Positions 43,648 to 62,764 of a stretch of DNA of 64,000 nt are shown here, piece by piece; within the stretch, counting starts at the first letter, position 1; each line of letters begins with the position of its first letter. Position numbers and translations under genes: made by a program. Origin of the DNA: Paracidobacterium acidisoli (GTDB lineage: Bacteria; Acidobacteriota; Terriglobia; Terriglobales; Acidobacteriaceae). The notes under the pieces are model-generated. The model had not been told where the DNA came from, searched no databases, and saw nothing but the letters and a program-made list of their open reading frames with translations. Location: the NCBI RefSeq assembly GCF_003428625.2, contig NZ_QVQT02000001.1, positions 496,001 through 560,000 on the forward strand, in the 5' to 3' direction.

Positions 43648-43723
43648 TTTTCCCAGGCTGTTGCAGTAAGCAAACGAAGATTCAACGATCGGGCAGGACC
43701 CGAGCACGATGGAGAGGTCATCC

Positions 43724-44008: not shown

Positions 44009-44104
44009 CGTCCGAGAGTCCGGCTGCACATTCCGGGGTCGCTGGAGATGCCGCTCCTGCTTTAGTCTGAAAGAGGACTCTCGCAGGAAAGGCAGATTTC
44101 GGCA

Positions 44105-44905: not shown

Positions 44906-44909
44906 GTTT

Positions 44910-46957: not shown

Positions 46958-47353
46958 ATGGGAGCAAACCGGCTGATGGTGGTTGCTGACAACCCCTGGA
47001 TGACCATTGTTCTTCTTCTGTTTGGCGCGCTGGCCTTTGGTACCGCCCCGCTGGCGCTGGCCTGGCTTTGGTCGAAGAAGTTCTCGCCGCGCAAGCCCGG
47101 TCCCGACAAGAATTCCATTTATGAATGCGGGCTGGAGTCTGAGGGCGATGCGTGGGTTCGCTTTCACGCGTCTTACTATCTGTACGCGATCGTCTTTCTG
47201 ATTTTCGACGTCGAGGCGGTCTTTCTGCTGCCCTTTGCGGTGTCGTTTACCAGACTTTCGGCGGGCGCGTGCATCGCCATGCTGGTCTTTCTGCTGCTGC
47301 TGGTGGAAGGACTGATATGGGCCTGGCAGAAGGGCGTGCTGACGTGGGCGTGA
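46958..47353 (+). CDS. nuoA: NADH-quinone oxidoreductase subunit A
   Basis: 131 residues, three membrane spans; the loop after the first carries [20 protein letters not shown] with the conserved Cys that sits by the quinone chamber, and [15 protein letters not shown] is the family's second-span block. It is a core membrane subunit at the junction of complex I arms. First gene of the nuo cluster; 146 bases separate it from the secretin stop. Confidence 0.93.
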
Positions 47354-47432: not shown

Positions 47433-48044
47433 ATGGACCAGGAACTGAAGATCGAGCTGAGCAAACACGGAATCTTCACGACGACCTTCGAGGAGCTTTA
47501 CAACTGGGGGCGGAAGAACTCCGTGTGGCCGCTGACCTTCGGCCTGGCCTGCTGCGCGATCGAGATGATTGCGACGACGATGGCCCGCTACGATCTGGCG
47601 CGGTTCGGCGCGGAGGTCTTTCGCGCCTCTCCGCGGCAGGCGGACCTGATGATCGTCTCGGGCACGGTGACGAAGAAGATGGCGCCGCAGGTGGTCCGGC
47701 TCTACAACCAGATGCCGGAGCCGAAGTACGTGATCGCAATGGGCGCGTGCGCAATCTCGGGCGGTCCCTTTCGCGACGGCTACAACGTGCTGAAAGGCAT
47801 TGACCGCTATATTCCGGTCGACGTGCATATTCCCGGCTGCCCGCCGAGACCGGAGGCGCTGATGCACGCCTTCATCACCCTGCAGAAGAAGATCGACGCG
47901 CAGCAGCTGACGGGCGAGGAGCGGCCGCGCCACCTGAAGGCCAATGAGCCGAGCGAGTTTCCGGTTCCGGAGTTCGGCGAGCATGGGCTGGAGCCGGCGC
48001 AGAATCCCGACGTCTTTCACCCGCTGAGGATTCTTGGGCAATGA
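47433..48044 (+). CDS. nuoB: NADH-quinone oxidoreductase subunit B
   Basis: 203 residues. Carries iron-sulfur cluster N2, the last electron stop before quinone: adjacent C40-C41 in [11 protein letters not shown]106 in GACAISGG and C136 in IPGCPPRPE. Its 3' end overlaps nuoC by four bases (ATGA). The C-terminal 50 residues are a flexible Pro/Glu-rich extension. Confidence 0.95.
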
Positions 48045-48649
48045 CGCAGGCGATCAGCGTGGAGGAGATCAAAGCAGCGATGGAAGCAGCCGTTCCCGGC
48101 TGCCGCGCGGAGATCCTTCGCAACGAAAGCCCGTCGGCGCAGCATTCCCTGCTGATCGACCACGAGCATGCGGTGAATGTGGCTGCTTTTCTGCGTGACG
48201 ACATGGCGCTGCGGCTGGACTTCTGCTCATGCGTCTCCGGCGTGGACTGGCCGGATCGCGAGATCACCGAAAAGGTGAAGGTGAAGAAGACCGTCACCAC
48301 ACCGGAGGGCGAAGCGCAGGAGCAGGATGTGGAGGAGACGCGGAAGACCATGATTCCCGGCTTTCTGGAAGCGGTCTATCACCTCTTTTCCATCGAGAAG
48401 AAGCATGGGCCGGTGGTGCTGCGGATGCGCACGGTTAACCGCGGCGGCGATGCGCGTCTTCCCTCGCTGACGCCGGTGTGGCGGAGCGCGGAGTTTCAGG
48501 AGCGCGAGGCCTTCGACCTGTACGGCATCGTGTTTGAAGGGCATCCGGACCTGCGCCGGATTCTGATGTGGGAGGGATTTGCGGATTATCCGATGCGGAA
48601 GGACTATGTGCCTCCTGCAGAGGACGATGTGGAGGCCGTTGCGAAATGA
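48041..48649 (+). CDS. nuoC: NADH-quinone oxidoreductase subunit C
   Basis: 202 residues of the 30-kDa subunit, separate from NuoD (in E. coli the two are fused). The signature [20 protein letters not shown] and the closing [13 protein letters not shown] are clear. A Lys/Glu-rich insertion lies near residues 78-105. It overlaps nuoB and nuoD by four bases each, so translation is coupled. Confidence 0.94.
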
Positions 48650-49803
48650 GTGCGATGGTCACCAGGGTAGTGCTCGAAGAAGAAGAGTCAGCGCGCGGCG
48701 TCGAAGGCGAGCTGCTCGAAATCTCGATGGGGCCGCATCATCCATCGACGCACGGCGTCTTTCGCATGGACGTGCGGCTGGACGGGGAGCGCGTCACCCG
48801 GCTGAAGCCGGTCTTCGGCTATCTGCACCGCAACCACGAGAAGATCGCCGAGAAGGCGAGCTACCTTGCGGCGATTCCCTACACCGACCGGCTGGATTAT
48901 CTGTGCTCGATGACCAACAACTGGGGCTACGCGCTGGCCGTCGAGAAGCTGGCCGGCATTCCGGTGCCGGAGCGGGCGGAGTACATCCGCGTGATTACGG
49001 CCGAGCTGACGCGGCTGCAGAACCACGCCTCGCTGATCGGCTTTCTGCTGCAGGATATGGGCGCGAGCGGCACACCGCTGATGTATGCCTTTCGCGAGCG
49101 CGAAAAGATTCTCGATCTGTTCGAGTCGCTGACCGGCGCGCGCATGATGTGCAACTACATGCGCTTTGGCGGCGTGCGCGTGGACTGTTCTTCAGAATGG
49201 CTTGAGGCTGCGCAGAACATTGCCTCCTCGTTTCCGCAGTTTCTGGACGAGTACGAACAGCTGCTGACCGGCAACGAGATTCTGATGGCGCGCACGCAGG
49301 GCGTGGGCGCGCTTTCGGCAGAACTGGCCGTGAATGCCGGCATCACCGGACCGATGCTGCGCGCCAGCGGCGTGAATTACGACCTGCGCAAAGTGGACCG
49401 CTACGGCATCTACGACCGCTTCACATTCCGCGTGCCGCTGGGCGATCACGGCGATGTGTACGACCGCTATATGATCCGGCTGCTGGAGATGCGCGAGTCG
49501 GTGAAGATTCTGGAGCAGGCGCTGGCCGCCATTCCGGAGGGCCCGATTATCGATCCGAAGACCCGGCTGCGCGGGCTGCGTCCTAAAGCGGGCGAAGCAT
49601 ACGGCCGCATCGAAGGACCGAAGGGCGAGCTGGGATTTTTCCTGATCAGCGATGGCTCGACGAATCCTTATCGTTATAAGGTGCGGCCGCCGAGCATGAT
49701 CAATCTGACGGTGCTGGAAGATATGTGCCTGGGACGCAATGTGGCGGATGTCGTCGTCATTCTGGGCAGCGTGGATATTGTGATGGGTGAAGTGGACCGG
49801 TAG
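48646..49803 (+). CDS. nuoD: NADH-quinone oxidoreductase subunit D
   Basis: 385 residues, the 49-kDa subunit that forms the quinone pocket with NuoB. Signature [19 protein letters not shown] has the conserved histidines, and [18 protein letters not shown] and [10 protein letters not shown] mark the middle and end. The ATG at 48646 overlaps the nuoC stop (ATGA); the open frame extends 26 codons upstream inside nuoC. After it a repeat array interrupts the tight packing of the cluster. Confidence 0.95.
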
Positions 49804-49806
49804 GAC

Positions 49807-49837
49807 AGGGCTCAGGGCTCAGGGCTCAGGGCTCAGG
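49807..49837. repeat. Perfect heptamer tandem array AGGGCTC x4 between nuoD and nuoI
   Basis: Four exact copies of AGGGCTC (49807-49834) followed by AGG. It fills most of the 54-base space between nuoD and nuoI, the place where nuoE, nuoF and nuoG stand in the classical 14-gene order. Confidence 0.85.
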
Positions 49838-49857: not shown

Positions 49858-50430
49858 ATGCTGGGTGAAGGCATCGTAAAAGGGCTGGCGGAGACGGCGC
49901 GAAACTTCCTGGGAAGTTTTGTCGACGAGGAGCGCCTGACCACCGTCGAGTATCCCGAAGAGCGGCTGCCGCAGGCGGAGGCGGCGCGGAATTTCCCGTT
50001 TCTGATCTACGACGGCGACGACGCGGAAAAGGGGCTGCGCTGCGTGGCCTGCCAGATCTGCGAGAAAGAGTGCCCGCCGCGCTGCATCCATATTGAAAAG
50101 AGCAAAGACAAGAAGCCGGATTATGTGGGCAAGCAGCAGTTTTATCCGGCGGTCTTCGACATTGACGTTTCCGTCTGCATGAGCTGCCAGATCTGCGTCG
50201 AGGTCTGCCCCTTCGAGGCGATCCGCATGGACACGCAGTTTGAGCTGAGCACCGATGATCGCTTCGGCGGCCTGCTGTGGACGAAGGCAGAGCTGGCAAA
50301 GACGAACGAGTACTACCACTCGATCCATCCCACCGAGGCCGGCGAGACCGACGCGCGCCTGGACGAAGAGAAGGCCAAAGTGGCGGCGAAGGCAAAGCCG
50401 GCTGAGGCAGAGATGCAGGCCAAAGCATGA
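49858..50430 (+). CDS. nuoI: NADH-quinone oxidoreductase subunit I
   Basis: 190 residues with two [4Fe-4S] ferredoxin motifs that carry clusters N6a and N6b: CVACQICEKECP (62-73) and CMSCQICVEVCP (about 103-114). The N-terminus is amphipathic; the C-terminal 40 residues are charged (EEKAKVAAKAKPAEAEM) and beyond the usual end. It precedes nuoH here, the reverse of the common order, and overlaps it by four bases. Confidence 0.94.
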   Translation: MLGEGIVKGLAETARNFLGSFVDEERLTTVEYPEERLPQAEAARNFPFLIYDGDDAEKGLRCVACQICEKECPPRCIHIEKSKDKKPDYVGKQQFYPAVFDIDVSVCMSCQICVEVCPFEAIRMDTQFELSTDDRFGGLLWTKAELAKTNEYYHSIHPTEAGETDARLDEEKAKVAAKAKPAEAEMQAKA

Positions 50431-51614
50431 CCCAGGCGCCGGTGCAGCAGCTCGATCAGATCTTCGTCATGCTGAAGCACTGGCTGGTGGGGTATGTGCC
50501 GGCGGCGGCGCAGCCGGTCGTCTCTTCGCTGCTCTCGGTGGTCGCGATCCTCGCACTCTTCCCCGCTCTCTTTGCCTTCACGACGGTGCTCGAGCGCAAG
50601 GGTCTGGGACGGATGCAGAACCGCTACGGACCGAATCGCGTGGGGCCGTTTGGGCTGCTGCAGCCGCTGGCGGACGGCATTAAATCGCTGACGAAGGAAG
50701 ATGTGGTTCCGCGCACGGCGGACAAGGCCGTCCATTTTATGGCTCCGCTGCTGCTGGTGGCCGCGTCGTTTCTGGCCTATGCGGTGCTGCCGGTGGGCCG
50801 CAATATGGCCGCGGTGAATCTCGATGCGGGCGTGCTTTATTTCTTTGCCGTGGGCGCGGTAGCCGAGCTTGCCGTGTTCATGGCGGGATGGTCGAGCCAC
50901 AACAAATATTCGCTGCTGGGCGCGATGCGCGCGATCGCGCAGATGATCAGCTATGAGGTGCCGCTGATTCTCTCGTCGCTCGCGGTGATTATGGCGGCGG
51001 GATCGCTGTCGACGGTGGAGATCGCCGGCAGGCAGGCCGGATACTCCGGCATCTGGCCGCACTGGTATGTGCTGACGCCGTGGGGCCTGGCGGGGTTTCT
51101 GCTGTTTATGATCGCGGCCACGGCGGAGACGAACCGCTCGCCCTTCGATCTGCCCGAGGGCGAGTCGGAGATCATCGCCGGATATTACACGGAGTACTCG
51201 GGCTTTAAGTTTGCGCTGTTCTTTCTGGGCGAGTATCTCGGCATGTTCGCCATCAGCGGCCTCGGCATCACGCTGTTTCTCGGCGGATGGTCCGCGCCGT
51301 TTTCGTTTCTGACGTGGATTCCGTCGTGGATATGGTTTTTCGCGAAGCTGCTGGCGCTGATTGCGGTGTTCATCTGGATGCGCGGCACGCTGCCGCGTCT
51401 GCGCATGGATCAGCTGATGAACTTCGCGTGGAAATTTATGCTGCCGATGGCGCTGCTGGTGATGGTCTCGGCCGGCGTGTGGCGCTTTCTTCCGCATGGA
51501 GTCCTTCGCTGGATCGTTTGCTTTGTCATGATTGCGGTGCCCTATGTTCTGCTGGGGCGCGGCCTGCTGCAGGGGAAAAAGATCGGGAAACGGACGTACC
51601 GCTTTGCAGAGTGA
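50427..51614 (+). CDS. nuoH: NADH-quinone oxidoreductase subunit H
   Basis: 395 residues, about eight to nine membrane spans. Forms the quinone channel; signatures ERKGLGRMQNRYGPNRVGP, YEVPLILSSLAVIM and ETNRSPFDLPEGESEIIAGY are present. Slightly longer than E. coli NuoH (325) because of an N-terminal extension and an added segment. Followed by a 60-base gap before nuoJ. Confidence 0.95.
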   Translation: MTQAPVQQLDQIFVMLKHWLVGYVPAAAQPVVSSLLSVVAILALFPALFAFTTVLERKGLGRMQNRYGPNRVGPFGLLQPLADGIKSLTKEDVVPRTADKAVHFMAPLLLVAASFLAYAVLPVGRNMAAVNLDAGVLYFFAVGAVAELAVFMAGWSSHNKYSLLGAMRAIAQMISYEVPLILSSLAVIMAAGSLSTVEIAGRQAGYSGIWPHWYVLTPWGLAGFLLFMIAATAETNRSPFDLPEGESEIIAGYYTEYSGFKFALFFLGEYLGMFAISGLGITLFLGGWSAPFSFLTWIPSWIWFFAKLLALIAVFIWMRGTLPRLRMDQLMNFAWKFMLPMALLVMVSAGVWRFLPHGVLRWIVCFVMIAVPYVLLGRGLLQGKKIGKRTYRFAE

Positions 51615-51674: not shown

Positions 51675-52202
51675 ATGAGCCTTTCCTTCCTCATTCTCGC
51701 GTTGCTGACGCTCGGTGGAGCGGTTGCCGCGATGACCCTGCACAGGCTGGTGCACTGTGTGCTGGCGCTGACGGTGGCGCTGGCCGGGCTGGCGGGACTC
51801 TACCTGAACCTGGGCGCGCAGTTCGTGGGCCTCGCGCAGATTCTGGTGTATGTGGGCGCGGTGGCGATCCTGATCGTCTTTGCGGTGCTGCTGACGCGGG
51901 GCGCGGAGATCGCATCGCAGATGGATTCGTCTCGGCAGGGCCGATTCTCTGCGCTGGCCGGAGGCGTGGCGACAGCCGCAGCGGTCTTCGCGGTGCTGGC
52001 CTGGGTGGTGCTTCACAGCCCGACATTGTCCGCGCCGGCAGCTACCATGACACAGGTTGCGCCGCAGGCCGCCATGCAGCAGATCGGCGATGCGCTGATG
52101 CGCCGCTATGTGCTGCCGCTCGAGGTGATGGGGCTGATGCTGACGGCGGCGCTGATCGGCGCGGTGATTCTCGCCCTCGAGGAGAAGCCTGAGGCGCAAT
52201 GA
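51675..52202 (+). CDS. nuoJ: NADH-quinone oxidoreductase subunit J
   Basis: 175 residues, five membrane spans, with LNLGAQFVGLAQILVYVGAV (the third helix that holds the pi-bulge in complex I) and a C-terminal GLMLTAALIGAVILALEEK span. Overlaps nuoK by four bases (ATGA). Confidence 0.92.
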   Translation: MSLSFLILALLTLGGAVAAMTLHRLVHCVLALTVALAGLAGLYLNLGAQFVGLAQILVYVGAVAILIVFAVLLTRGAEIASQMDSSRQGRFSALAGGVATAAAVFAVLAWVVLHSPTLSAPAATMTQVAPQAAMQQIGDALMRRYVLPLEVMGLMLTAALIGAVILALEEKPEAQ

Positions 52203-52510
52203 CTCCGCTGACCGGCTGCCTTCTCGTCTCTTCTCTGCTGTTCGCCATTGGCCTTGGCGGCGCGCTGACGCGGCGCAGCGCCATCCTTGTACTGATCGGC
52301 ATCGAGCTGATGCTGAATGCCGCCAACCTCAACTTCATCGCCTTCTGGAGATACGGACCGCACTCTGAAGCGCTGACCGGAATGCTGTTCGTGATCTTCT
52401 CCATTGCCGTGGCCGCGGCTGAGGCCGCTGTAGGTCTGGCGCTGATCATCGCGATCTATCGCCATACAAAGACAACCGATGTGCAGGAAATGGACGAGCT
52501 GAGGGGATAG
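52199..52510 (+). CDS. nuoK: NADH-quinone oxidoreductase subunit K
   Basis: 103 residues, three membrane spans with the two buried glutamates in IGIELMLNAANLNFI and AVAAAEAAVGLALII, part of the central proton path. Length and motifs are standard. Confidence 0.94.
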   Translation: MTPLTGCLLVSSLLFAIGLGGALTRRSAILVLIGIELMLNAANLNFIAFWRYGPHSEALTGMLFVIFSIAVAAAEAAVGLALIIAIYRHTKTTDVQEMDELRG

Positions 52511-52522
52511 ACCGGTACACGC

Positions 52523-54610
52523 ATGGCATGGATTCTTCGCAACCTGTGGCTGATTCCCGCGCTGCCGACGCTGGCGGCGGGGATCAGCGCGCTGCTGCCG
52601 CAGCGGCGGCGTGCGATGTCGGCGGGGCTGGCGATCGGCTCGATGAGCCTTTCGCTTCTGCTCGCGCTGTGCGCCTTTGCGCATACGCTCGCGGAGCCGG
52701 CGCGGCAGGTCTTTAACTTTCGCTGGATGCAGTTCGGCGCGGAGTGGGTCAGCCTGGGCTGGGTGCTCGATCCGCTGACGGCGGTGATGCTGGTGATGGT
52801 CACCTTTGTCGGCCTGCTGATCTTCCTCTTCAGTGTGGGATATATGGCCCACGACGAGAACTTCACGCGCTTCTTCTGCTTCCTCTCGCTGTTTTCGGGA
52901 GCGATGCTGGGCGTGGTGATCGCGAACAGCCTGCTGCTGCTGTTCATGTGCTGGGAGATCGTGGGACTGACGTCGTACCTGCTGATCGGCTTCTGGTATC
53001 AGCGGCCATCGGCGGCGGCGGCGGCGAAGAAGGCCTTCATCACTACCCGCATCGGCGACCTTGGCCTGCTGCTGGGGATGGTGTGGCTGTATGGACAGAC
53101 GGGCACGCTGCTGTTTTATGACCATGGCGCCGGATGCATGGAGCACGGTGCGCTGAGTCTGCTGACGGCGCAGACAACGAGCATCGGTATGGCGGTGTCG
53201 ACGGCCATCGGACTGCTGATCTTCTGCGGCGCGGTGGGGAAATCCGGCCAGGTTCCGCTGCATGTATGGCTGCCTGACGCGATGGAGGGCCCGACCCCGG
53301 TAAGCGCGCTGATTCACGCGGCGACGATGGTGGCGGCGGGCGTCTTCCTGGTGGCGCGGACCTATCCCCTCATGAGCGCGTCGCTGCCCGATGCGGCTTC
53401 AGCAGCCACGACGGCGCTGCAGGTGATTGCGTGGGTGGGCGCGATCACCGCGGTATTTGCGGCGCTGATCGCCGTCGCGCAGAACGATATCAAGCGCATT
53501 CTTGCTTACTCCACCGTCTCGCAGCTTGGATACATGATGCTGGGGCTGGGCGTGGGCGGCGTTGCCGTGGGCATGTTTCACCTGATCACGCACGCCTTCT
53601 TCAAGGCGCTGCTCTTTCTCGGCGCGGGATCGGTGATTCACGGCTGCAGCGATGAGCAGGATATCCGCCGCATGGGCGGATTGCGCCGGTGGATGCCGGT
53701 CACCTTTGCGACCTATGCGGCAGGCATGCTGGCACTGTGCGGCTTTCCGCTCTTTGCCGGCTTCTGGAGCAAGGACGAGATTCTGCACGCGGCGCATGGA
53801 TGGAGCATCTCGCAGGGCCCGTTTTACCTCGGAGCCTTTGGCGCGCTGCTGACGGCGTTTTATATGACGCGGCAGGTCTGCTACGTCTTCTTCGGACGAT
53901 ACCGTTCGGGGGCCGCACACACGGCAGATGCGCAGCACGCGCATGGACATGACCACGCCGCGCACGCTGCCAGCAAACCGCATGAGAGCCCCGCGGTGAT
54001 GACCGTCCCGCTGACGATTCTTGCCGTCTTCGCCGTGCTGCTCGGATTCGCCGGCACACCGGCATGGCCGTGGTTCGCTTCGTTTCTCGGCGGCGAGCCG
54101 CTGTCGCTCGACTTCAGGCGATTCGCAGAGAACGGCATTCTGCCGCTGATGCTCGCGTCTTCTCTGATCGTGATTGCGGGGCTGGCGCTGGGGTGGTGGC
54201 TCTATGGACGGAAGCCGGTCGAGGATGCCGACGCGCCGGATGTGCTGGAGCGCGCGCAGCCCGGTATTTTTCACGCACTGCAGAACCGGCTGTACGTCGA
54301 TGAGTTCTATTCCTGGACGATCATTCGCCTGGCGCGATGGGGTGCCGTGTTGTCGGACTGGCTGGACCGCCGGGTCTGGAATGGCGTGGTGCAGCTTGTG
54401 GCCTGGACGGTGCGGGCCTGCGGGTGGTTTGACGCATCGGTCGACAGCTATGTGGTGAATGCCGGCTTCGACGAAAGCTGCCGCGGCGTATCGGGCAGCG
54501 GACGGTTTTTCTCGATGCTGCAGAACGGCCAGGTGCAGCGCTATCTGCGTACGGTCGGCATCGCGCTGGCTGTGCTGATGGTGCTGCTGCTGTGGAGCCG
54601 CAGAGGATGA
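52523..54610 (+). CDS. nuoL: NADH-quinone oxidoreductase subunit L, extended lateral helix
   Basis: 695 residues, antiporter-like distal subunit. Proton-channel residues are present: E145 in CWEIVGLTSY and K240 in AVGKSGQVPLHVWLPDA. A His-rich loop (AQHAHGHDHAAHAAS) stands near 470-485. Between the last two membrane spans lies a helical, amphipathic stretch of about 110 residues (563-672), where E. coli NuoL has about 75 by my count. This lateral helix clamps the other antiporter subunits; a longer one fits a complex with an additional NuoM. Its stop overlaps nuoM1 (ATGA). Confidence 0.94.
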   Translation: MAWILRNLWLIPALPTLAAGISALLPQRRRAMSAGLAIGSMSLSLLLALCAFAHTLAEPARQVFNFRWMQFGAEWVSLGWVLDPLTAVMLVMVTFVGLLIFLFSVGYMAHDENFTRFFCFLSLFSGAMLGVVIANSLLLLFMCWEIVGLTSYLLIGFWYQRPSAAAAAKKAFITTRIGDLGLLLGMVWLYGQTGTLLFYDHGAGCMEHGALSLLTAQTTSIGMAVSTAIGLLIFCGAVGKSGQVPLHVWLPDAMEGPTPVSALIHAATMVAAGVFLVARTYPLMSASLPDAASAATTALQVIAWVGAITAVFAALIAVAQNDIKRILAYSTVSQLGYMMLGLGVGGVAVGMFHLITHAFFKALLFLGAGSVIHGCSDEQDIRRMGGLRRWMPVTFATYAAGMLALCGFPLFAGFWSKDEILHAAHGWSISQGPFYLGAFGALLTAFYMTRQVCYVFFGRYRSGAAHTADAQHAHGHDHAAHAASKPHESPAVMTVPLTILAVFAVLLGFAGTPAWPWFASFLGGEPLSLDFRRFAENGILPLMLASSLIVIAGLALGWWLYGRKPVEDADAPDVLERAQPGIFHALQNRLYVDEFYSWTIIRLARWGAVLSDWLDRRVWNGVVQLVAWTVRACGWFDASVDSYVVNAGFDESCRGVSGSGRFFSMLQNGQVQRYLRTVGIALAVLMVLLLWSRRG

Positions 54611-56157
54611 GCGGAGCTCCCTGGATCACGCTGCTGACTCTGCTGCCGCTGGCGGGCGGTGTGGCTGCGCTCATCACGCGATCGGCGCGGGCAGCGCGGT
54701 GGATATCAGCCGCATTCGGCGGCGCGGCGCTGCTGCTGACGATTGCGCTGTGGCACAGCTTCAGTCCCGCCTCCGGCATCCTGCAGTTTCAGGAGCGGCA
54801 TGCGTGGCTGCCTGCTCTGGGCCTTGAGTACCACGTAGGCGCGGACGGGCTGGGCCTGCTGATGCTGGCGCTGTCGGCCATCGTGGTGCTGATGTCGATC
54901 GCCGCCTCGTGGAAGAACGAAGAGCATGGCGCGCTCTATTACGCGCTGGTGCTGTTTCTGGAAGCGGGCCTCTTCGGCACATTTACCGCGCTGAATTTCG
55001 TGCACTGGTTTCTCTTCTGGGAGCTGAGCCTGATTCCGGCTTTTTTTCTGGTGCGGCTGTGGGGTGGTCCGGCGCGGGCGCGCGCGGCAACACAGTTTTT
55101 CCTCTACACGATGGTGGGCAGCGTAGCGCTGCTGCTGGCCTTTCTGCTGCTCTTTCTGGCGACGGGCAGCTTCGACTTCATCGACCTGGCCGGGCTGGCC
55201 CGCAATGGACAGCTCTCCGGTCTGCTGGCGCAGAACCTGCACTGGCCGGGCTGGAGCGGCGATGAGATCGCAGCGCTCATCTGCTGCGGAGCCTTCCTTG
55301 GCTTCGCGGTCAAAGTGCCGGTCGTGCCGTTTCATACCTGGCTCCCCTCGGCCTATGCCGAAGCACCTTCGAGCACGACCATGCTGCTGACCGGCGCGAT
55401 GTCGAAGATGGGGCTGTACGGATTTCTGCGCGTGCTGCTGCCGATCTTTCCGGCGCAGATGCAGCATCTGCAGACGCCGCTGCTGTGGCTGGCGGTGGCG
55501 AGCATTGTGCTTCCGGCCTTTGCGGCATGGGCGCAGACCGATCTGAAGCGCATCTTCGCCTATTCGTCGATCAATCATCTCGGCTACTGCCTGCTGGGTA
55601 TCTGCGCGGTGCTGCGCGTGACCGGAGCAAACACAGCGCTGGCGGCAGAGAAGGCCGCGGCGATGAACGGCGTGCTGCTGCAGATGTTTAATCACGGACT
55701 GACGGCGGCGGCGCTGTTCTGGTTTGTCGCGCTGCTGGAGCGCCGCAGCGGCGGGCTGCGCGGCCTGGATGACTTTGGCGGACTGCGAAAGGCTGCGCCG
55801 GTCTTCTGCGGACTGATGGGCATCGCGCTCTTCTCTTCGCTCGGGCTGCCGGGGCTGAACGGGTTTCCGGGAGAGTTTCTGATCTTTAAGGGCAGCTTTC
55901 CGCTGACGCCGCGCGCCGCGTCGATATCCGTGCTCGGGCTGCTGATGACGGCGGTCTTTCTTCTGACGATTCTGCAGAAGGTCTTCTCCGGTCCGCTGTC
56001 TGAGAGGTGGGCGGCCTTCCCCGATCTGACGACGGCGGAGCGGGCGCTTCTGCTGCCGGCGCTGGCACTGATGCTGGTGCTGGGTGTGTATCCGCAACTG
56101 ATTCTCAGCCTGGTCAACGGCACGGCGCTGCAGCTTGTGTCGCAACTGAGGTTTTAA
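54607..56157 (+). CDS. nuoM: NADH-quinone oxidoreductase subunit M, first copy
   Basis: 516 residues, about 14 membrane spans. All classical charged residues are kept: E139 in FWELSLIPAFF, K236 in GFAVKVPVVPFHTW and K267 in GAMSKMGLYG. It therefore looks like a working proton-pumping antiporter module. It begins on ATG 54607, overlapping the nuoL stop, and ends four bases before a second, divergent nuoM. Confidence 0.93.
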   Translation: MSGAPWITLLTLLPLAGGVAALITRSARAARWISAAFGGAALLLTIALWHSFSPASGILQFQERHAWLPALGLEYHVGADGLGLLMLALSAIVVLMSIAASWKNEEHGALYYALVLFLEAGLFGTFTALNFVHWFLFWELSLIPAFFLVRLWGGPARARAATQFFLYTMVGSVALLLAFLLLFLATGSFDFIDLAGLARNGQLSGLLAQNLHWPGWSGDEIAALICCGAFLGFAVKVPVVPFHTWLPSAYAEAPSSTTMLLTGAMSKMGLYGFLRVLLPIFPAQMQHLQTPLLWLAVASIVLPAFAAWAQTDLKRIFAYSSINHLGYCLLGICAVLRVTGANTALAAEKAAAMNGVLLQMFNHGLTAAALFWFVALLERRSGGLRGLDDFGGLRKAAPVFCGLMGIALFSSLGLPGLNGFPGEFLIFKGSFPLTPRAASISVLGLLMTAVFLLTILQKVFSGPLSERWAAFPDLTTAERALLLPALALMLVLGVYPQLILSLVNGTALQLVSQLRF

Positions 56158-56160
56158 CCG

Positions 56161-57666
56161 ATGCTCGCCTGGACGATTTACATTTCGTTTCTCGGCGCGG
56201 CGGCCGTGATGGCCGTGCCCCGGGAAAACGCGCGGCCGGCGAGATGGATCGCTCTGCTGTGCGCGCTCGCGGGCTTCGGGATCACTCTGGCGGCGGCGAT
56301 GCAGTATCGCGCGGGCGAGCTGATGACGGTGGCCGATGCGCGGTGGATTCCGCAGCTCGGCATCGAATATCATCTGGCGATCGACGGCATCAGTCTCACG
56401 CTGCTGCTGCTGACCGGGATCGCAGCCATTGCCGGCATTCTCTTCTCGTGGAATATCGAGCGGCGCGTGCAGGAGTTCTTCGCGCTCTATCTGGCGCTGA
56501 TCGGCGGCGTGTACGGCGTATTTCTGAGCTTCGATCTCTTCCTGCTCTTCATCTTCTACGAGATCGCGATCATTCCGAAGTATTTTCTGATTGCGATCTG
56601 GGGCTCGACGCGGCGCGAGTACGCGGCGATGAAGCTGGCGCTGTATTCCTTTGTGGGCAGCGCGATGGTGCTGGCCGGCATGATCGCCGCCTTCGTCACC
56701 GCGGGCGCGACGACGATGAACCTGGCCGAGCTGGCGCGCTATCCCTTCCCGGTGCACTTTCAGATGTGGGCGTTTCCGCTGGTCTTTGTGGGCTTCGCGA
56801 TTCTTGCCGGCCTGTGGCCCTTCCACACCTGGGCGCCGACCGGGCACGTGGCTGCGCCGACCGCGGCTTCGATGCTGCTGGCCGGCGTGGTGATGAAGCT
56901 GGGCGCGTACGGCTGCCTGCGCGTGGCGATGATGCTCTTTCCGCAGGGGCTCGATCCCTGGGGATTTCACGTCCTCGGATTCGGCTCGTGGCGCGATGTC
57001 TTTGCTCTGATGGCGCTGATCGGCATTCTGTACGGCGCAACCGTCGCGCTGGTGCAGAAGGACTTCAAGTTCGTCATCGGCTACTCGAGCGTAAGCCACA
57101 TGGGCTTTGTGCTGCTGGGGCTGATGACGCTGAACCTGATCGGCCTGGACGGCGCGGTGCTGCAGATGTTTTCGCACGGCGTGATTGCGGGGCTGCTGTT
57201 TGCCGTGGTCGGGCGCATGATCTACGACCGGACGCACACACGCAACCTGAATGAGCTCGAAACAATGCGGCTGAGCCGCTCTCTTCCCTTTGCGGCGGTG
57301 ACGTTCATTGTGGCCGCGATGGCGTCCATTGGGCTGCCGGGCTTCAGCGGCTTTATCGCCGAGCTTCAGATACTGATCGGCGCATGGAGGGCCTTCCCCG
57401 CCTTTGCCATGCTGGCCGGAGTGGGCATTCTGGTCGGCATCGCCTTCACCTGGAGGGCGCTGCAGAAGGCCTTCTTCGGCGAAGCGGCGCCGGCTGCGGA
57501 GGCTCATCCGCTGCCGCCGGTCACGCTTCCCGAAAAACTGGGCGCGCTGCTGCTGATGACCGCCACGCTGGTGATCGGGCTTTATCCGCGGCTGCTGGTC
57601 GATCTGATTCTGCCCAGCCTCAACTCACCGCTCTTTGCCGGGCTGCATAAGGCGGTGTGGCGATGA
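56161..57666 (+). CDS. nuoM: NADH-quinone oxidoreductase subunit M, second copy
   Basis: 501 residues, about 14 membrane spans, clearly NuoM family but not a recent copy of its neighbour. E134 (FYEIAIIPK) and the helix-8 lysine K246 (GVVMKLGAYG) are present. The helix-7 lysine is missing: the aligned position is L215 in GFAILAGLWPFHTW. A lysine appears instead at 140, six residues after E134. The block GLWPFHTWAPTGHVAAP is characteristic. It overlaps nuoN by four bases. With NuoL, NuoM1 and NuoN it makes four antiporter-like subunits. Confidence 0.92.
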   Translation: MLAWTIYISFLGAAAVMAVPRENARPARWIALLCALAGFGITLAAAMQYRAGELMTVADARWIPQLGIEYHLAIDGISLTLLLLTGIAAIAGILFSWNIERRVQEFFALYLALIGGVYGVFLSFDLFLLFIFYEIAIIPKYFLIAIWGSTRREYAAMKLALYSFVGSAMVLAGMIAAFVTAGATTMNLAELARYPFPVHFQMWAFPLVFVGFAILAGLWPFHTWAPTGHVAAPTAASMLLAGVVMKLGAYGCLRVAMMLFPQGLDPWGFHVLGFGSWRDVFALMALIGILYGATVALVQKDFKFVIGYSSVSHMGFVLLGLMTLNLIGLDGAVLQMFSHGVIAGLLFAVVGRMIYDRTHTRNLNELETMRLSRSLPFAAVTFIVAAMASIGLPGFSGFIAELQILIGAWRAFPAFAMLAGVGILVGIAFTWRALQKAFFGEAAPAAEAHPLPPVTLPEKLGALLLMTATLVIGLYPRLLVDLILPSLNSPLFAGLHKAVWR

Positions 57667-59141
57667 GCGGCGTGAGCTACTTCGCGCTGCTGCGGCTGAC
57701 GCTGCCGCAGATCGCTCTGGCTCTGGGCGCGTTCCTGACGCTGACGCTCGATCTGACGGTGCTGCGGCGCAGAGCGCAGTCGACGCGCTTTCTCGCAGGC
57801 GCACTGACGGCCTGCTGCGGCTGCGTCGCGGCGATGCTTCTGCTGGCCTGCGCGAGCGGACAGCAGACTCTCTTCGACGGCATGATGGTGGCAAATCCGC
57901 TGACCCGGCTGATCCAGATGGCGCTCGCGGCCTTCGCCATCCTCGCCGTTCTGCTCTCGGTCTCGTCGCAGTTTACCCGCCACGTGGGCGAGTACCTCAG
58001 CCTGATTCTGTTTGCGACCGTGGCGATGATGTTTCTGGCGGGCACGCAGAACCTGCTGCTGATCTTCATCTCGCTGGAGTTTCTGAGCCTCTCGCTGTAC
58101 ATCCTCACCGGCTTCAGCAAGCGCAGCCGCGCGTCGGCGGAAGCGGCGCTGAAATACTTTCTCTTCGGCGGCATGTCGGCCGGATTCCTGCTCTTCGGCA
58201 TGAGCCTGCTGTACGGCCTCACGGGCTCGATCAACCTGATGCAGATCGCTGCCGCACTCGGCGGTCCGGCGCTCGATCCGCTGCTGCTGGCGGCCATCGT
58301 GATGGTGGTGATCGGCTTCGGCTTCAAGGTTGCTGCTGCGCCCTTCCATCTGTGGGCTCCCGATGCGTATCAGGGCGCGCCCACGCCGAGCGCCGCCTTT
58401 ATTGCATCGAGCTCCAAGATTGCCAGCTTCTTCATCTTTGCGCAGGTGATGATGCTGGGCCTCGCTGGCGCAGCCGGCAGCGCGGGCTGGCAGAGCTACT
58501 CCTCCGGATGGGTAATGGTCATTGCCATCGTGGCGGCGGTGTCGATGCTGCTGGGCAATCTCGCCGCCATTGCGCAGACCAGCGTGCGCCGGCTGCTGGC
58601 GTATTCGGCGATCGGCCATGCGGGATACATGCTGCTGGGGCTCGCGGCGCATACGCAGCAGAGCCTCGAAGCGCTGATCTATTACGTACTGACCTATGCG
58701 CTGGCGGCGATGGGCGCCTTCGGCGTGCTGGGGGCGCTGGAAGCAGAGGGCGTGGATGAGCTGAAAAGCCTTGGCGGGCTGAGCCGCAGGGCTCCGGTGC
58801 TCTCCTTCTGCATGTTTGTCTTTCTGCTCTCGCTGGCCGGGATTCCACCCCTGGCGGGGTTCTTCGGCAAGTTCTACGTCTTCGTCGAGGCCTTCCGCGC
58901 CGGCTCAGGTGAGCTGCTGTGGCTGGTGCTGCTGGCCATCGCCACCAGCGCCGTGTCTCTTTACTACTACCTGCGGGTGCTGAAGCAGATCTACGTCGTG
59001 CAGCCGGAGGCCGATGCGGCGGAAGCGATCCATACGCCGCTGCTGCATCGCGCGGTGCTGTGCGTGATGGCAGCGCTGGTGGTGCTGCTGGGCTGCGCTC
59101 CGCACCTGCTGCTCCAGTGGATCGGCCAGGCCATGCGCTGA
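57663..59141 (+). CDS. nuoN: NADH-quinone oxidoreductase subunit N
   Basis: 492 residues, about 14 membrane spans. Classical residues present: E in FISLEFLSLSLYILTGF, K in GFGFKVAAAPFHLWAPD and K in ASSSKIASFF. It contacts NuoK and NuoM. The ATG at 57663 overlaps the nuoM2 stop (ATGA). It is the last gene of the cluster; the fucose SDR converges on it after 17 bases and no terminator hairpin was seen. Confidence 0.94.
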   Translation: MSGVSYFALLRLTLPQIALALGAFLTLTLDLTVLRRRAQSTRFLAGALTACCGCVAAMLLLACASGQQTLFDGMMVANPLTRLIQMALAAFAILAVLLSVSSQFTRHVGEYLSLILFATVAMMFLAGTQNLLLIFISLEFLSLSLYILTGFSKRSRASAEAALKYFLFGGMSAGFLLFGMSLLYGLTGSINLMQIAAALGGPALDPLLLAAIVMVVIGFGFKVAAAPFHLWAPDAYQGAPTPSAAFIASSSKIASFFIFAQVMMLGLAGAAGSAGWQSYSSGWVMVIAIVAAVSMLLGNLAAIAQTSVRRLLAYSAIGHAGYMLLGLAAHTQQSLEALIYYVLTYALAAMGAFGVLGALEAEGVDELKSLGGLSRRAPVLSFCMFVFLLSLAGIPPLAGFFGKFYVFVEAFRAGSGELLWLVLLAIATSAVSLYYYLRVLKQIYVVQPEADAAEAIHTPLLHRAVLCVMAALVVLLGCAPHLLLQWIGQAMR

Positions 59142-59158: not shown

Positions 59159-59962
59159 TCAGCCGCGCAGGTTCATGTATCCGCCATCGAGAGGATAGTT
59201 CATTCCGGTGATGAACGACGCATCGTCGGAGCAGAGATAGAGCGCCAGCCGCGCCACTTCATCGGGAGTAGCCATGCGACCGATGGGCTGCGACTCCGCG
59301 AGCTTCGCGAACATCTCCTCTTCGCGGCCGGGATAGTTCTTTGCGACGAATCCATCGACAAAGGGCGTATGCACGCGGGCCGGGGAGATGGCGTTGCAGC
59401 GAATCTTCTGCGGGAGATAGTCCTTCGCCACCGAATAGGTCATGGCGAGAATGGCGCCCTTGCTGGTGGAGTAGGCGAAGCGGTCCGCGATACCGGCAAT
59501 GGCCGCAATCGACGCAAGGTTCAGGATGACTCCGCCATTCTGCGCGACCATGTGGCCGATGGCGGCGTGCAGGCAGTTATACGCGCCCTTCACGTTCACG
59601 CCGATCACGCGATCGAAATCCTCTTCCGAAGTGGTGGAGAGCTTGCCGACGTGCGCGATGCCGGCATTGTTGACGAGGATGTCGATGCGCCCCTTCGCGG
59701 CAATCTCGCAGAAGACCCGTCCGACCAGGGAGTGATCCTGCACGTCACACGACCAGGCCTCTGCCCTGCCGCCCGCAGCGGAGATCGTTGCGGCAGCGAC
59801 GGCGGCGTCCTGGAGGTTGCGGTCCACAATGTGTACGTGAGCGCCGCTCGCGGCGAAGAGCTGAGCGATGGACAAGCCGATGCCGCTGGCGCCACCGGTG
59901 ATGACTGCGGTTTTATCGAGAAGCAACGATGAAGCGGGCGCGGTGGAATGAGTCATAAGCAT
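59159..59962 (-). CDS. SDR dehydrogenase, probably 2-keto-3-deoxy-L-fuconate dehydrogenase
   Basis: 267-residue classical SDR: TGGASGIG, VDRN acidic residue after strand 2 (NAD preference), NNAG, LASIAA serine and YSTSK. In the non-phosphorylating L-fucose pathway of Xanthomonas an SDR oxidises 2-keto-3-deoxy-L-fuconate to the diketo acid, which a FAH protein then cleaves; both neighbours are here. Assignment rests on this context; L-fucose dehydrogenase is the alternative. No ribosome site is clear at the ATG. Confidence 0.8.
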   Translation of the reverse strand: MLMTHSTAPASSLLLDKTAVITGGASGIGLSIAQLFAASGAHVHIVDRNLQDAAVAAATISAAGGRAEAWSCDVQDHSLVGRVFCEIAAKGRIDILVNNAGIAHVGKLSTTSEEDFDRVIGVNVKGAYNCLHAAIGHMVAQNGGVILNLASIAAIAGIADRFAYSTSKGAILAMTYSVAKDYLPQKIRCNAISPARVHTPFVDGFVAKNYPGREEEMFAKLAESQPIGRMATPDEVARLALYLCSDDASFITGMNYPLDGGYMNLRG

Positions 59963-60128
59963 CCGAAATAAAATTGTGAAATCTTTAAAAACGCCTGATG
60001 TAACCGCTGTCAGCGATCTTTTTCAATGCACTGACGCTATGAGATGCATGCGATCGATGTCAATCCTGACTCCCGTTCCGCGGGACCGGCCCCCCTTCAT
60101 GAAACAGCGCGCAGGAAGCCGGATCGCT

Positions 60129-61094
60129 CTACAGTCCCGTGAACGTTCGCTCCCAGCGATGGGCCTTCAGCTTCGACAGGAGCGCGGCATCGAGGCCGCC
60201 TGCATCGCTGAGGGCCAGGTTCTGGCGCACGTGCTGCTCTTTGCGCATACCGGCGATCAGCGTGCTGACCGCGGGGTGCGAGAGGATGTACCGGATGGCT
60301 GCCTCCGGAAGCGTCATACCCGAAGGAAGATCCGCAGCGAGGCGGTCCACACGGTCGAGGGTGGTATTCAGATTCTCCGGGCTGAAGTATTTTGACCGGA
60401 AATCATTCGGAGGAAAGACCGTATCGCGGGTCAGCTTGCCTCCCAGCGATCCCTCGTCGAGCGGCACACGGGCAATGACACCGACGTTGTGTTCGAGGCA
60501 GGCCGGGAAGAGCTCATCCTCGGGGTTCTGGTCGAGCACGTTGTAAATTACCTGCACCGTATCGACGAGTCCGGTGCGGATGGCGGCGATACCGTTCGCC
60601 GGCTCCCAGCGATTGAGGCTGAGCCCAAAGCTATGAATGATTCCGTCATGCTTCAGCTTCTCGACGGTGCTGCGAAACTCCGGCCTCTCGGTCCAGGAGT
60701 CGTTCCACACGTGGAACTGCAGCAGATCGATGGTATCGACGCCGAGCGCGCGGCGGATTTTGTCGGCGAAGGTGAAGACGTGCTCCGGCGGAAAGGCTTC
60801 GCTGTAGTCGTAGCTGAAGAGGGCCGGCCATTTACGGTTCAATGGAGGAATTTTGGAGGCCGCATAAAGCCGCTTTCCCGGATTGGCGGCGATGATTTTG
60901 CCGAGAAGCTGGTCGCTGTGCCCTTCGCCGTATCCCCAGGCGGTATCGAAAAAATTGCAGCCCAGATCGGCGGCAAGCTGCAGAGAGGCGAGCGATTCGG
61001 CGTCATCGGAGCCGCTCCATCCGCTCATGCCCCACAGCCCGCAGGCCACATCGCTCACCTTCCATCCCGTTTTACCCAGCGTTCGATAATGCAT
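60129..61094 (-). CDS. Aldo/keto reductase, probably L-fucose dehydrogenase
   Basis: 321-residue TIM-barrel aldo/keto reductase with the tetrad: D50 and Y55 in FFDTAWGYGEGHSD, K81 in AASKIPP, and H in LLQFHVWND. The closing STLIAGMRKEQHVRQN binds the cofactor phosphate. In L-fucose loci an AKR of this kind oxidises L-fucose to L-fuconolactone. GGGAGAAGC stands right before the ATG. A 166-base gap separates it from the SDR downstream on the same strand. Confidence 0.82.
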   Translation of the reverse strand: MHYRTLGKTGWKVSDVACGLWGMSGWSGSDDAESLASLQLAADLGCNFFDTAWGYGEGHSDQLLGKIIAANPGKRLYAASKIPPLNRKWPALFSYDYSEAFPPEHVFTFADKIRRALGVDTIDLLQFHVWNDSWTERPEFRSTVEKLKHDGIIHSFGLSLNRWEPANGIAAIRTGLVDTVQVIYNVLDQNPEDELFPACLEHNVGVIARVPLDEGSLGGKLTRDTVFPPNDFRSKYFSPENLNTTLDRVDRLAADLPSGMTLPEAAIRYILSHPAVSTLIAGMRKEQHVRQNLALSDAGGLDAALLSKLKAHRWERTFTGL

Positions 61095-61335
61095 GCTTCT
61101 CCCTCTGTCTGCGTGATTGACGGCCGCCCTGAGACGGCGCTTCCGACAGTTCAGAATATCCCGCCGGCGAGGGGACTTTCCGCGCCTCCTGGCCGATCAT
61201 CCCATTGTCCGGAATCCGTTGTGGTCAAATATTCAAAGAAACTGCACAGCATGGCGGACGCAGCACCGGACGCAGATAGTTGTCCAAAGCACGGGCCGGT
61301 TTTCGTGTTTCATCTATTAAACTTGAATTTTGATC

Positions 61336-61364
61336 TTGAAATTAGCATGCGGACAAATTAGAAC
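61336..61364 (+). promoter_or_regulatory. Candidate promoter of the fuconate dehydratase operon
   Basis: TTGAAA (61336-61341), 17-base spacer, TAGAAC (61359-61364). The predicted start near 61371 falls in the first inverted repeat. Confidence 0.35.
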
Positions 61365-61365
61365 A

Positions 61366-61393
61366 CTTCTGAAGGCCCGATGCGGTTCAGAAG
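61366..61393. promoter_or_regulatory. Inverted repeat, possible operator
   Basis: CTTCTGAA (61366-61373) and TTCAGAAG (61386-61393) are perfect inverted copies 12 bases apart, at the predicted transcription start. A dimeric repressor could bind here. Confidence 0.4.
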
Positions 61394-61414
61394 ACGATGA
61401 AAATTCAGCAGCGC

Positions 61415-61434
61415 ATGATCGGCTTAACGATCAT
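61415..61434. promoter_or_regulatory. Second inverted repeat, possible operator
   Basis: ATGATCG (61415-61421) and CGATCAT (61428-61434) are perfect inverted copies with a six-base loop, 31 bases before the fuconate dehydratase start. Confidence 0.4.
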
Positions 61435-61465
61435 TTTCGACTGACAGACAGGAGCATTTTCGGCA

Positions 61466-62764
61466 TTGAGTGAACTGAAGATTACCGATTTTCGCGTAAT
61501 CGATCTGCGCTTTCCCACTTCGCGCGAGCACATCGGATCGGACGCCGTAAACAAAGACCCCGACTATTCGGCGGCATACTGCATTCTGGAGACAAATCAC
61601 GGGCTGCGCGGCTTTGGGCTGACCTTTACCCTGGGCCGCGGCACCGAGCTGTGCGTGGAGGCGCTGCGCTATCTCGCGGGATTTGCAAAGGGCCGCACCC
61701 TCTGCTCCATCACCGACAACTTTGCCGCCTTCAGCGAAGTGCTGACCGGAGAAACGCAGTTCCGCTGGCTCGGCCCCGAGAAGGGTGTGATTCACCTCGC
61801 CACGGCGGCGCTGCTGAACGCCATCTGGGACCTCTATGCGCGCAGCGAGGGCAAGCCGCTGTGGAAGCTGCTGGCCGACATGGAGCCGGAGCAGATTGCC
61901 GGCGCCGTCGACTTTCGCTATATCAGCGATGCGCTGAGCCGCGAAGAGGCTATCGAGCTGCTGCGCGCGCGCCGGGCGGGCATGGAAGACCGTCTCGCGC
62001 AGCTGCAGAAGACCGGCTACCCGGCCTACACCACTTCGGCGGGCTGGTTCGGCTTCAGCGATGAAAAGATCTCGATGCTCTGCGACCAGGCGCTTGCCGA
62101 AGGATGGACGCACTTCAAGCTCAAGGTGGGCGGCAATCCGCCGGACGATCTGCGGCGGGCGCGGCTGATGCGCTCGAAGATCGGCCCGAACCGCAGGCTG
62201 ATGATGGACGCGAACCAGAAATGGGGCATCGAAGAGGCGATTGTGCGCACGCGCGAGCTGGCCGAGGTGAATCCCTGGTGGATGGAAGAGCCGACCAGTC
62301 CGGACGATGTGCTGGGCCATGCCCGCATCCGCCGCGAGGTTCCCGAGGTGCGGATCGCAACCGGCGAGCACTGCCAGAACCGCATCATGTTCAAGCAGTT
62401 CATGCAGGCCGAGGCGCTGGACGTATGCCAGATCGACAGCTGCCGCCTGGCCGGAGTGAATGAAAACCTTGCCGTGATTCTGATGGCGGCGAAGTTCGGC
62501 GTCCCCGTCTGCCCGCATGCCGGCGGCGTGGGGCTCTGCGAATATGTGCAGCACCTTTCGGCCTTCGACTACCTGCGGGCTTCGGCGACGCTCGAAAACC
62601 GCGTGACTGAATTTGTGGATCACCTGCACGAGCATTTCATCGATCCGGTGCGCATTCGCAACGCCCACTATCTGCTGCCGGAACAGCCCGGATACAGCAG
62701 TGAGATATATTCGAAGACGCTGCAGGATTACAGCTTTCCCGATGGACGGGTGTGGAGAAAGTAG
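61466..62764 (+). CDS. fucD: L-fuconate dehydratase (enolase superfamily)
   Basis: 432 residues. Removes water from L-fuconate to give 2-keto-3-deoxy-L-fuconate. By direct count the mandelate-racemase-group residues are K218 and K220 (FKLKVGG), metal ligands D248 (MMDANQKWG), E274 (WMEEPTSPDD) and E301 (ATGEHCQNR), D324 (CQIDS) and H351 (CPHAGGVGLCE), the same set known for Xanthomonas FucD. The start is TTG at 61466 with AGGAG about 12 bases upstream. The next gene begins at the very next base after its stop. Confidence 0.92.
   Translation: MSELKITDFRVIDLRFPTSREHIGSDAVNKDPDYSAAYCILETNHGLRGFGLTFTLGRGTELCVEALRYLAGFAKGRTLCSITDNFAAFSEVLTGETQFRWLGPEKGVIHLATAALLNAIWDLYARSEGKPLWKLLADMEPEQIAGAVDFRYISDALSREEAIELLRARRAGMEDRLAQLQKTGYPAYTTSAGWFGFSDEKISMLCDQALAEGWTHFKLKVGGNPPDDLRRARLMRSKIGPNRRLMMDANQKWGIEEAIVRTRELAEVNPWWMEEPTSPDDVLGHARIRREVPEVRIATGEHCQNRIMFKQFMQAEALDVCQIDSCRLAGVNENLAVILMAAKFGVPVCPHAGGVGLCEYVQHLSAFDYLRASATLENRVTEFVDHLHEHFIDPVRIRNAHYLLPEQPGYSSEIYSKTLQDYSFPDGRVWRK

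What the first reader, a model, noticed from the sequence alone, without database searches (positions are those of the whole stretch)
54607..57666. Complex I operon with two distinct full-length NuoM subunits (four antiporter-like subunits)
The operon encodes NuoL, NuoM1 (516 aa), NuoM2 (501 aa) and NuoN in tight series with four-base overlaps or a four-base gap. The two NuoM proteins are divergent, not a recent duplication. Published comparative work on complex I describes modified cassettes that carry a fourth pumping subunit, supported by a longer NuoL amphipathic helix; this operon has both signs. If assembled, it could move more protons per electron pair, which changes the energy balance of the quinone reaction. 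The pump stoichiometry is inference.
Basis: partly seen in the sequence, partly recalled or inferred. Interest (0 to 1): 0.8.

Follow-up and report, generated by a model that had tools for sequence, protein, structure and literature searches.

The report
Complex I with two NuoM subunits
A soil-type acidobacterium carries, besides a normal respiratory complex I, a second version with an extra pump-like subunit; this kind has been described before, but the extra subunit lacks an amino acid that pumping normally needs, so an extra pumped proton should not be taken for granted.

Summary
The window carries a 12-gene complex I operon, A-B-C-D-I-H-J-K-L-M1-M2-N, in an Acidobacteriaceae-type genome. 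M1 and M2 are 32% identical and form two separate old clades. L-M1-M2-N is contiguous in 67 of 80 related loci; contig ends cut 12 of the other 13. NuoL's arm-spanning segment is 24 residues longer than in the genome's normal NuoL (same length in 62 of 62 related NuoLs measured). This is the published '2M' complex I, already noted in Acidobacterium capsulatum.

(1) M2 lacks the helix-7 lysine essential in E. coli NuoM: leucine in 80 of 80 relatives, with an invariant new lysine in helix 5. (2) The long NuoL segment does not prove a fourth pump: 15 of 21 measurable loci with other NuoMs of the phylum have it, and 11 of those 15 show L-M-N with one M. (3) The operon has no nuoE, F or G; the genome's only NuoE and NuoF matches lie in its normal complex I operon, so NADH need not be the donor.

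Best reading: a four-module, EFG-less complex I. The fifth proton is unproven and, for M2, less certain.

The parts
46958..47353 (+). nuoA (131 aa)
   Evidence: NCBIfam NuoA models, best E 4e-29, below their curated cut-offs
47433..48044 (+). nuoB (203 aa); four cysteines at 40, 41, 106, 136
   Evidence: NCBIfam above cut-off; cysteines
48041..48649 (+). nuoC (202 aa)
   Evidence: NCBIfam NuoC models, best E 2e-32, below cut-off
48646..49803 (+). nuoD; ATGA overlap with nuoC; start read by eye at 48646 (the ORF list starts at 48568)
49858..50430 (+). nuoI (190 aa), two CxxCxxCxxxCP motifs, charged C-terminal tail
   Evidence: NuoI models below cut-off
50427..51614 (+). nuoH (395 aa)
   Evidence: NCBIfam above cut-off
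51675..52202 (+). nuoJ (175 aa)
   Evidence: NuoJ models, best E 2e-33, below cut-off
52199..52510 (+). nuoK (103 aa)
   Evidence: NCBIfam above cut-off
52523..54610 (+). nuoL (695 aa) with lengthened arm-spanning segment
   Evidence: NCBIfam above cut-off; model helix 589-645, low confidence 644-675
54299..54529 (+). NuoL residues D593 to G669: the stretch that is 24 residues longer than in canonical NuoL of the class; weak 26-residue internal repeat
54607..56157 (+). nuoM1 (516 aa); keeps E144, K234, K265, H322, H348, E407 (E. coli NuoM numbering)
56161..57666 (+). nuoM2 (501 aa); Leu215 at the K234 position, Lys140 in helix 5; keeps E144, K173, K265, H322, H348, E407
57657..59141 (+). nuoN (494 aa from GTG 57657, or 492 aa from ATG 57663)
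   Evidence: NCBIfam above cut-off

Best explanation
The operon encodes a second complex I of the published 2M kind: a quinone-reducing module (B, C, D, I with H) and a membrane arm of four antiporter-like subunits, probably in the order N-M2-M1-L, held together by a longer NuoL helix. It has no NADH module of its own. Electrons most likely enter through NuoI from ferredoxin or a similar low-potential carrier, as in the cyanobacterial enzyme; borrowing the single NuoEFG of the canonical complex is possible. M1 has the full set of pump residues. M2 keeps most of them but lacks the helix-7 lysine and has one in helix 5 instead, so it is either a re-wired pump or a passive relay. Shown: gene content, order, conservation, length of the NuoL segment, residue changes. 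Inferred: joint assembly, arm order, donor, stoichiometry.
For: L-M1-M2-N contiguous in 67 of 80 loci, 12 of the other 13 cut by contig ends. All twelve genes found in 38 of 80 loci, in the exact order in 37 of those 38. Lengthened NuoL segment in 62 of 62 NuoLs measured, out of 80 loci. E144, K265, H322, H348 and E407 in 71 of 71 full M1 and 80 of 80 M2, so both are under strong constraint. One NuoE and one NuoF match in the genome, both in the canonical operon, and no NuoG match in the window. In three further family genomes with a single NuoF (G029, G039, G052) it lies 6-8 kb from the canonical NuoL. No E/F/G hit in any of the 80 loci as far as they reach. The five best structure matches of NuoL are cyanobacterial NDH-1. 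Prior description of the kind.
Against: The lengthened segment also occurs with a single NuoM gene, so it does not prove a four-module arm. M2 lacks a residue whose mutation abolishes function in E. coli NuoM. No structure or expression data for this organism. For the donor only gene absence was seen. In all 37 ordered loci under 1 kb lies before nuoA, so an EFG cluster just upstream is not excluded for most relatives. In L069 M2 is preceded by an unrelated gene.
Confidence: 0.72

Rival explanations
1. Four modules assemble but M2 does not pump. Without the helix-7 lysine it is a structural relay, so the complex moves four protons, not five. (This rival is compatible with the assembly part of the best explanation; the odds are not exclusive.)
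For: Leu at the K234 position in 80 of 80 M2, against K in 25 of 25 other NuoMs of the phylum sample; mutation of that lysine in E. coli N, M or L is reported as loss of function (PMC3046159, passages).
Against: The remaining channel residues are invariant in M2 and an invariant lysine stands in helix 5. Bacteroides finegoldii NuoM, the only NuoM annotated in its operon, also has Leu there, so the lysine may be dispensable in this lineage.
Confidence: 0.4
2. M1 and M2 are alternatives: each complex holds one of them, giving two kinds of three-pump enzyme.
For: Each is a full NuoM; single-M complexes with equally long NuoL segments exist in the phylum.
Against: M1 lies directly before M2 in 76 of 80 loci, three of the other four being cut there and L069 being different. 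Each has its own invariant residue pattern, and they come from two old lineages rather than a duplication.
Confidence: 0.1
3. The complex is an NADH dehydrogenase that shares NuoE, F and G with the canonical complex I of the same cell.
For: All 17 genomes with M2, out of 80 family genomes, also have at least one PF01512 (NuoF-type) match; by recall that Pfam family also covers subunits of other enzymes. nuoB, C, D and I of the docking region are present.
Against: Window D and C are only 45% and 30% identical to the canonical ones; EFG-less complex I with other donors is well known (recalled).
Confidence: 0.25
4. M2 belongs to another enzyme such as an Mrp antiporter or a hydrogenase.
For: Antiporter-like subunits are shared widely; M2 lacks one NuoM hallmark.
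Against: The thirteen best NCBIfam models for M2 are NuoM or NAD(P)H-quinone oxidoreductase subunit 4 models, and M2 sits between M1 and N in 67 of the 68 clusters not cut by a contig end.
Confidence: 0.03

Closest known systems
2M complex I (Chadwick et al. 2018, ISME J, doi 10.1038/s41396-018-0210-1; not held, known here through papers that cite it)
   Same: Second NuoM and a lengthened NuoL; hypothesis of a higher proton number.
   Different: As far as the citing papers tell, nothing in the architecture. The M2 residue change was in no passage I read; the original paper could not be opened and may mention it.
Unusual complex I of Acidobacterium capsulatum 161 (PMC11636273)
   Same: A second complex I beside a canonical one, with duplicated nuoM, in a genus of the window's likely family; reported as transcribed (passages).
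   Different: No sequence of that strain was compared here.
Nitrospira 2M complex I, clade 3 (PMC6606698)
   Same: Two NuoM, long NuoL, no nuoE or nuoF.
   Different: Nitrospira's cluster lacks nuoH and has an enlarged nuoG; this operon has nuoH and no nuoG.
Candidatus Manganitrophaceae Complex_I_3 and Complex_I_1/2 (PMC9040806)
   Same: Helix insertion of 26 residues; the paper also reports such insertions in NuoL of complexes of canonical gene content.
   Different: Complex_I_3 has five antiporter-like subunits, two of them MrpD-like.
Bacteroides finegoldii complex I (NZ_OY725950, L147)
   Same: No E/F/G annotated in the stretch shown; NuoM 42-44% identical to M2 and also Leu at the K234 position; NuoL is the sister row of the 2M clade, on a long branch.
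   Different: One NuoM, short NuoL segment (motif distance 49), C and D apparently fused.

Membership tests
2M complex I | Second full-length NuoM in the operon, between L and N | tested here: met
   67 of 80 loci contiguous
2M complex I | NuoL arm-spanning helix lengthened (26 residues in the published cases seen) | tested here: met
   74 against 50 residues, i.e. +24. Not specific: also found in single-M complexes
2M complex I | Both NuoM in one particle and one more proton per cycle | not testable with these tools
   no protein data
2M complex I | Phylogenetic place within a published 2M clade | not tested
   no Nitrospira or Chloroflexi 2M sequence was obtained; the 2018 paper is not held
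Nitrospira-type (clade 3) 2M complex I | No nuoH, enlarged nuoG | tested here: not met
   nuoH present; no NuoG match in the window
Canonical pumping NuoM (E. coli type): M1 | E144, K234, K265, E407 | tested here: met
   71 of 71 full-length M1
Canonical pumping NuoM (E. coli type): M2 | Helix-7 lysine K234 | tested here: not met
   Leu in 80 of 80, plus the window and four more rows
NADH:quinone oxidoreductase (14-subunit complex I) | Own nuoE, F and G in the operon | tested here: not met
Mrp antiporter / membrane hydrogenase | Mrp or hydrogenase partner genes | tested here: not met
   all 12 genes match Nuo or NAD(P)H-quinone oxidoreductase models best

The most novel reading that the evidence does not exclude
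The length of the NuoL arm helix is a ruler for the number of antiporter modules but not for the number of genes: EFG-less complex I across Acidobacteriota has a four-module arm, built with two copies of one NuoM where only one nuoM gene exists, and with two specialised NuoMs in the 2M form, where M2 has moved its ion-pair lysine from helix 7 to helix 5. The alternative within the same evidence is that helix length tracks loss of the NADH module and says nothing about pumps.
Probability: 0.12. Interest if true: 0.82.

Novelty: new member of a known kind. Interest (0 to 1): 0.47.

Why it matters
The 2M complexes are quoted as enzymes thought to move one more proton per cycle, which would change energy budgets and could serve reverse electron flow to ferredoxin. 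Two supports for that idea turn out weaker here: the long NuoL segment occurs without a second nuoM gene, and the M2 lineage lacks a lysine whose mutation abolishes function in E. coli. Nature seems to have removed that lysine in an 80-sequence family, and in the one Bacteroides NuoM read here, which makes the role of the lysine/glutamate pair directly testable.

Tried and rejected
Recent duplication of nuoM: rejected; 32% identity and two separate clades. M2 as a decaying copy: rejected; many invariant positions (36 rows). M2 as part of another enzyme: rejected by family and gene order. Helix lengthening as a mark of 2M alone: I first took it so (where one 'canonical' row, L131, did not fit), then found it in single-M loci. 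MAFFT placed the insertion of L131 elsewhere in the segment; an ungapped register test of 63 2M and 18 single-M segments scores best at offset 0 among -8 to +8 (0.01 against -0.58 for the next), a weak similarity but a clear register.

Helix length against nuoEFG: among the rows scored outside the 2M clade, 18 long without EFG, 16 short with E, F or G, 1 short without (Bacteroides). Five of 23 long and 11 of 28 short rows were not scored, for want of a fetched or complete neighbourhood. Part of the scoring was by hand: the L159 row (neighbourhood L201) was counted as 'no EFG' although a NuoF-like gene lies 130 bases before its nuoA; three short rows were counted as EFG on a nuoE hit alone. Only three independent pairs stand on supported branches, two going the same way, none the other, one without difference (sign test p 0.5), so it is a clade-level correlation, not a tested law.

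Led nowhere: search of plasmids for a 2M operon (184 records, all under 60% identical, 15 listed, two looked at); literature searches for the M2 lysine and for 2M in Acidobacteria by that name (no hit); one search returned one paper, which I did not open. No multimer prediction was possible. The flanking genes scanned show no respiratory families.
Full report
What is there. The window lies in a 5.0 Mb genome of 15 contigs, 97% complete. The best matches at this locus in named records are mostly titled Acidobacteriaceae or Acidobacteria, then Verrucomicrobiota, with a few bins under other names. NuoB has four cysteines, NuoI two CxxCxxCxxxCP motifs, NuoD the HPSTHG motif. There is no nuoE, F or G among them.

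A second complex I in the same genome. A search with PF00361 finds seven antiporter-like genes: the four here and three on contig C8. The C8 operon holds A, C, D, E, F, G, H, J, K, L, M, N; a second nuoB-type gene lies at C8:625962 and the best nuoI match at C11:8856. The genome has one NuoF match and one NuoE match, both in the C8 operon. A NuoG domain (PF10588) matches twice, in the C8 nuoG and in a 1046-codon frame at C8:460727, not in the window.

Conservation. Eighty related loci were fetched with M2 (the best 80 of 466 relatives). L-M1-M2-N is contiguous in 67 of 80; 3 lack M1, 2 lack N and 7 lack L because the contig ends there; in L069 1.5 kb of other sequence precedes M2, whose translation I read as a Dam-like methylase. 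All twelve genes are found in 38 of 80 loci, in the exact order in 37 and rearranged in L038. No E/F/G hit appears in any of the 80 (queries from C8, E up to 1e-6), but in the 37 under 1 kb is seen before nuoA. In the window's family 17 of 80 genomes, the own one included, carry M2 at E 1e-120 or better; all 17 have at least one PF01512 match, 7 of them exactly one. In a phylum sample only 5 of 149 genomes, all of this family, have an M2 of 69% identity or more; the other matches listed (E up to 1e-90) are at 38-44%. Records titled Verrucomicrobia, Limisphaerales or Pedosphaera have M2 at 65-74% identity, which suggests transfer between the phyla (inference).

M1 and M2. They are 32.4% identical over 466 columns. 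In a tree of 75 sequences the 16 M1 rows form one clade (97/99), the 16 M2 rows another (100/99), and M2 is sister to Bacteroides finegoldii NuoM (100/100; that row has a long branch). So the operon combines two old NuoM lineages. NuoL of the 2M operons is one clade (100/100), with Bacteroides NuoL as sister (99/93, also a long branch). A plausible history, inferred only: a Bacteroidota-like EFG-less operon with an M2-type NuoM gained M1 and a longer NuoL.

Pump residues. Residue numbers follow E. coli NuoM; the roles are from PMC9271201 and PMC3046159 (passages); some positions put into the scan (such as H348) were recalled. M1: E144, K234, K265, H322, H348, E407 in 71 of 71 full-length rows. 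M2: E144, K265, H322, H348, E407 in 80 of 80, but leucine instead of K234 in 80 of 80. The surrounding sequence aligns without a gap (GFAVKVPVVPFHTW in M1, GFAILAGLWPFHTW in M2). M2 has an invariant lysine at E. coli position 150 in helix 5 (81 of 81 with the window), where M1 has alanine and the other NuoMs read methionine. Of 25 other NuoMs of the phylum sample, chosen as the best matches to M2, 25 have K234; of 10 NuoMs from nine class loci 10 have it (one of these belongs to a short-segment complex); the Sinorhizobium NuoM has it; Bacteroides has leucine. PMC3046159 states that mutations of this lysine in N, M or L caused loss of function. The M2 model (mean pLDDT 82) has helix 126-148 with E134 and K140 and a helix 198-215 ending at the leucine; 222-238 is of low confidence. 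Whether K140 replaces the lost lysine cannot be seen from this.

The NuoL segment. Between the DE.Y motif and the Q.G motif lie 74 residues in 62 of 62 measured 2M NuoLs (of 80 loci; the others gave no full, clean NuoL) and in the window, 50 in the C8 NuoL, 45 in E. coli, 50-51 in 28 of 29 other NuoLs of the class; the 29th (L131) has 74. The NuoL model shows a continuous helix 589-645, with low confidence at 644-675. Following the odd row led to single-M complexes with a long segment: nine class loci with 73 to 84 residues and one NuoM each for that complex (the motif choice in L138 is ambiguous, 84 or 109; in L137 L and M lie apart from the rest), and 15 of 21 measurable NuoL tails next to the 25 NuoMs above with 74-75 (6 with 49-50; 4 of 25 not measurable). 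In 11 of these 15 nuoN is the next antiporter-like gene after the single nuoM; in the other four none was seen after it. Genomes G080 and G005 have exactly six antiporter-like genes for two complexes, so no spare NuoM; their long segments are 77 and about 84 residues. The long segments of both kinds match best without any shift and score best against themselves at an offset of 26 among ten offsets tried, more clearly in the single-M kind (0.16) than in 2M (-0.38). On the NuoL tree, built without the segment, the single-M long rows lie apart from the 2M clade; long/short needs 7 changes on the best tree, though supported branches force only 3. The lengthening is therefore repeated or inherited more widely, and not a sign of a fourth pump by itself. 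PMC9040806 already reported such insertions in complexes of canonical gene content.

Helix length and the NADH module. Outside the 2M clade, a long segment goes with no EFG in 18 rows, short with E/F/G in 16, short without in 1; unscored rows, hand scoring and the weak independent support (two informative pairs, p 0.5) are told under 'tried and rejected'.

What is known. PMC6606698 (passages and one section), PMC9040806, PMC7117926 and PMC12342949 (passages) describe the 2M complex I after Chadwick et al. 2018: second NuoM, lengthened NuoL, proposed extra proton. PMC11636273 (passages) reports a second, transcribed complex I with duplicated nuoM in Acidobacterium capsulatum and cites that paper. 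The present operon is thus a member of a known kind. I did not see the M2 lysine change, or single-M long segments in Acidobacteriota, in the passages I read or in the listings of searches; the 2018 paper itself was not held and may mention either.

Verdict. Observation confirmed; kind already published; stoichiometry claim weakened by the residue and helix evidence; electron donor open, with no NADH-input genes in this operon.

Noticed in passing
G000 contigs C8:625962 and C11:8856: The canonical complex I operon of this genome (C8, 472-486 kb) showed no nuoB or nuoI inside; the best other matches lie far away, so these two genes seem detached.
   Followed up: partly
window 49806-49837: A 7-base tandem repeat (CAGGGCT, 4.6 perfect copies) sits between nuoD and nuoI.
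   Followed up: no
G000 C8 NuoM (483213-484742): The canonical NuoM has Ser and Glu at the E. coli H322 and H348 columns, where M1 and M2 rows have His.
   Followed up: no
L069 1-1519: M2 is preceded on this contig by a Dam-like DNA methylase instead of M1 (read from the translation); a real rearrangement or an assembly join.
   Followed up: no
L147 (Bacteroides finegoldii plasmid record NZ_OY725950): An EFG-less complex I operon is annotated on a 25.8 kb 'plasmid' record; it may be a mis-assigned chromosomal contig.
   Followed up: no
window 43709-46811 and 59159-63610: Neighbours: Fis-type HTH, HAD hydrolase and secretin genes upstream; SDR, aldo/keto reductase, enolase-type and FAH-type genes downstream, perhaps sugar catabolism.
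   Followed up: partly
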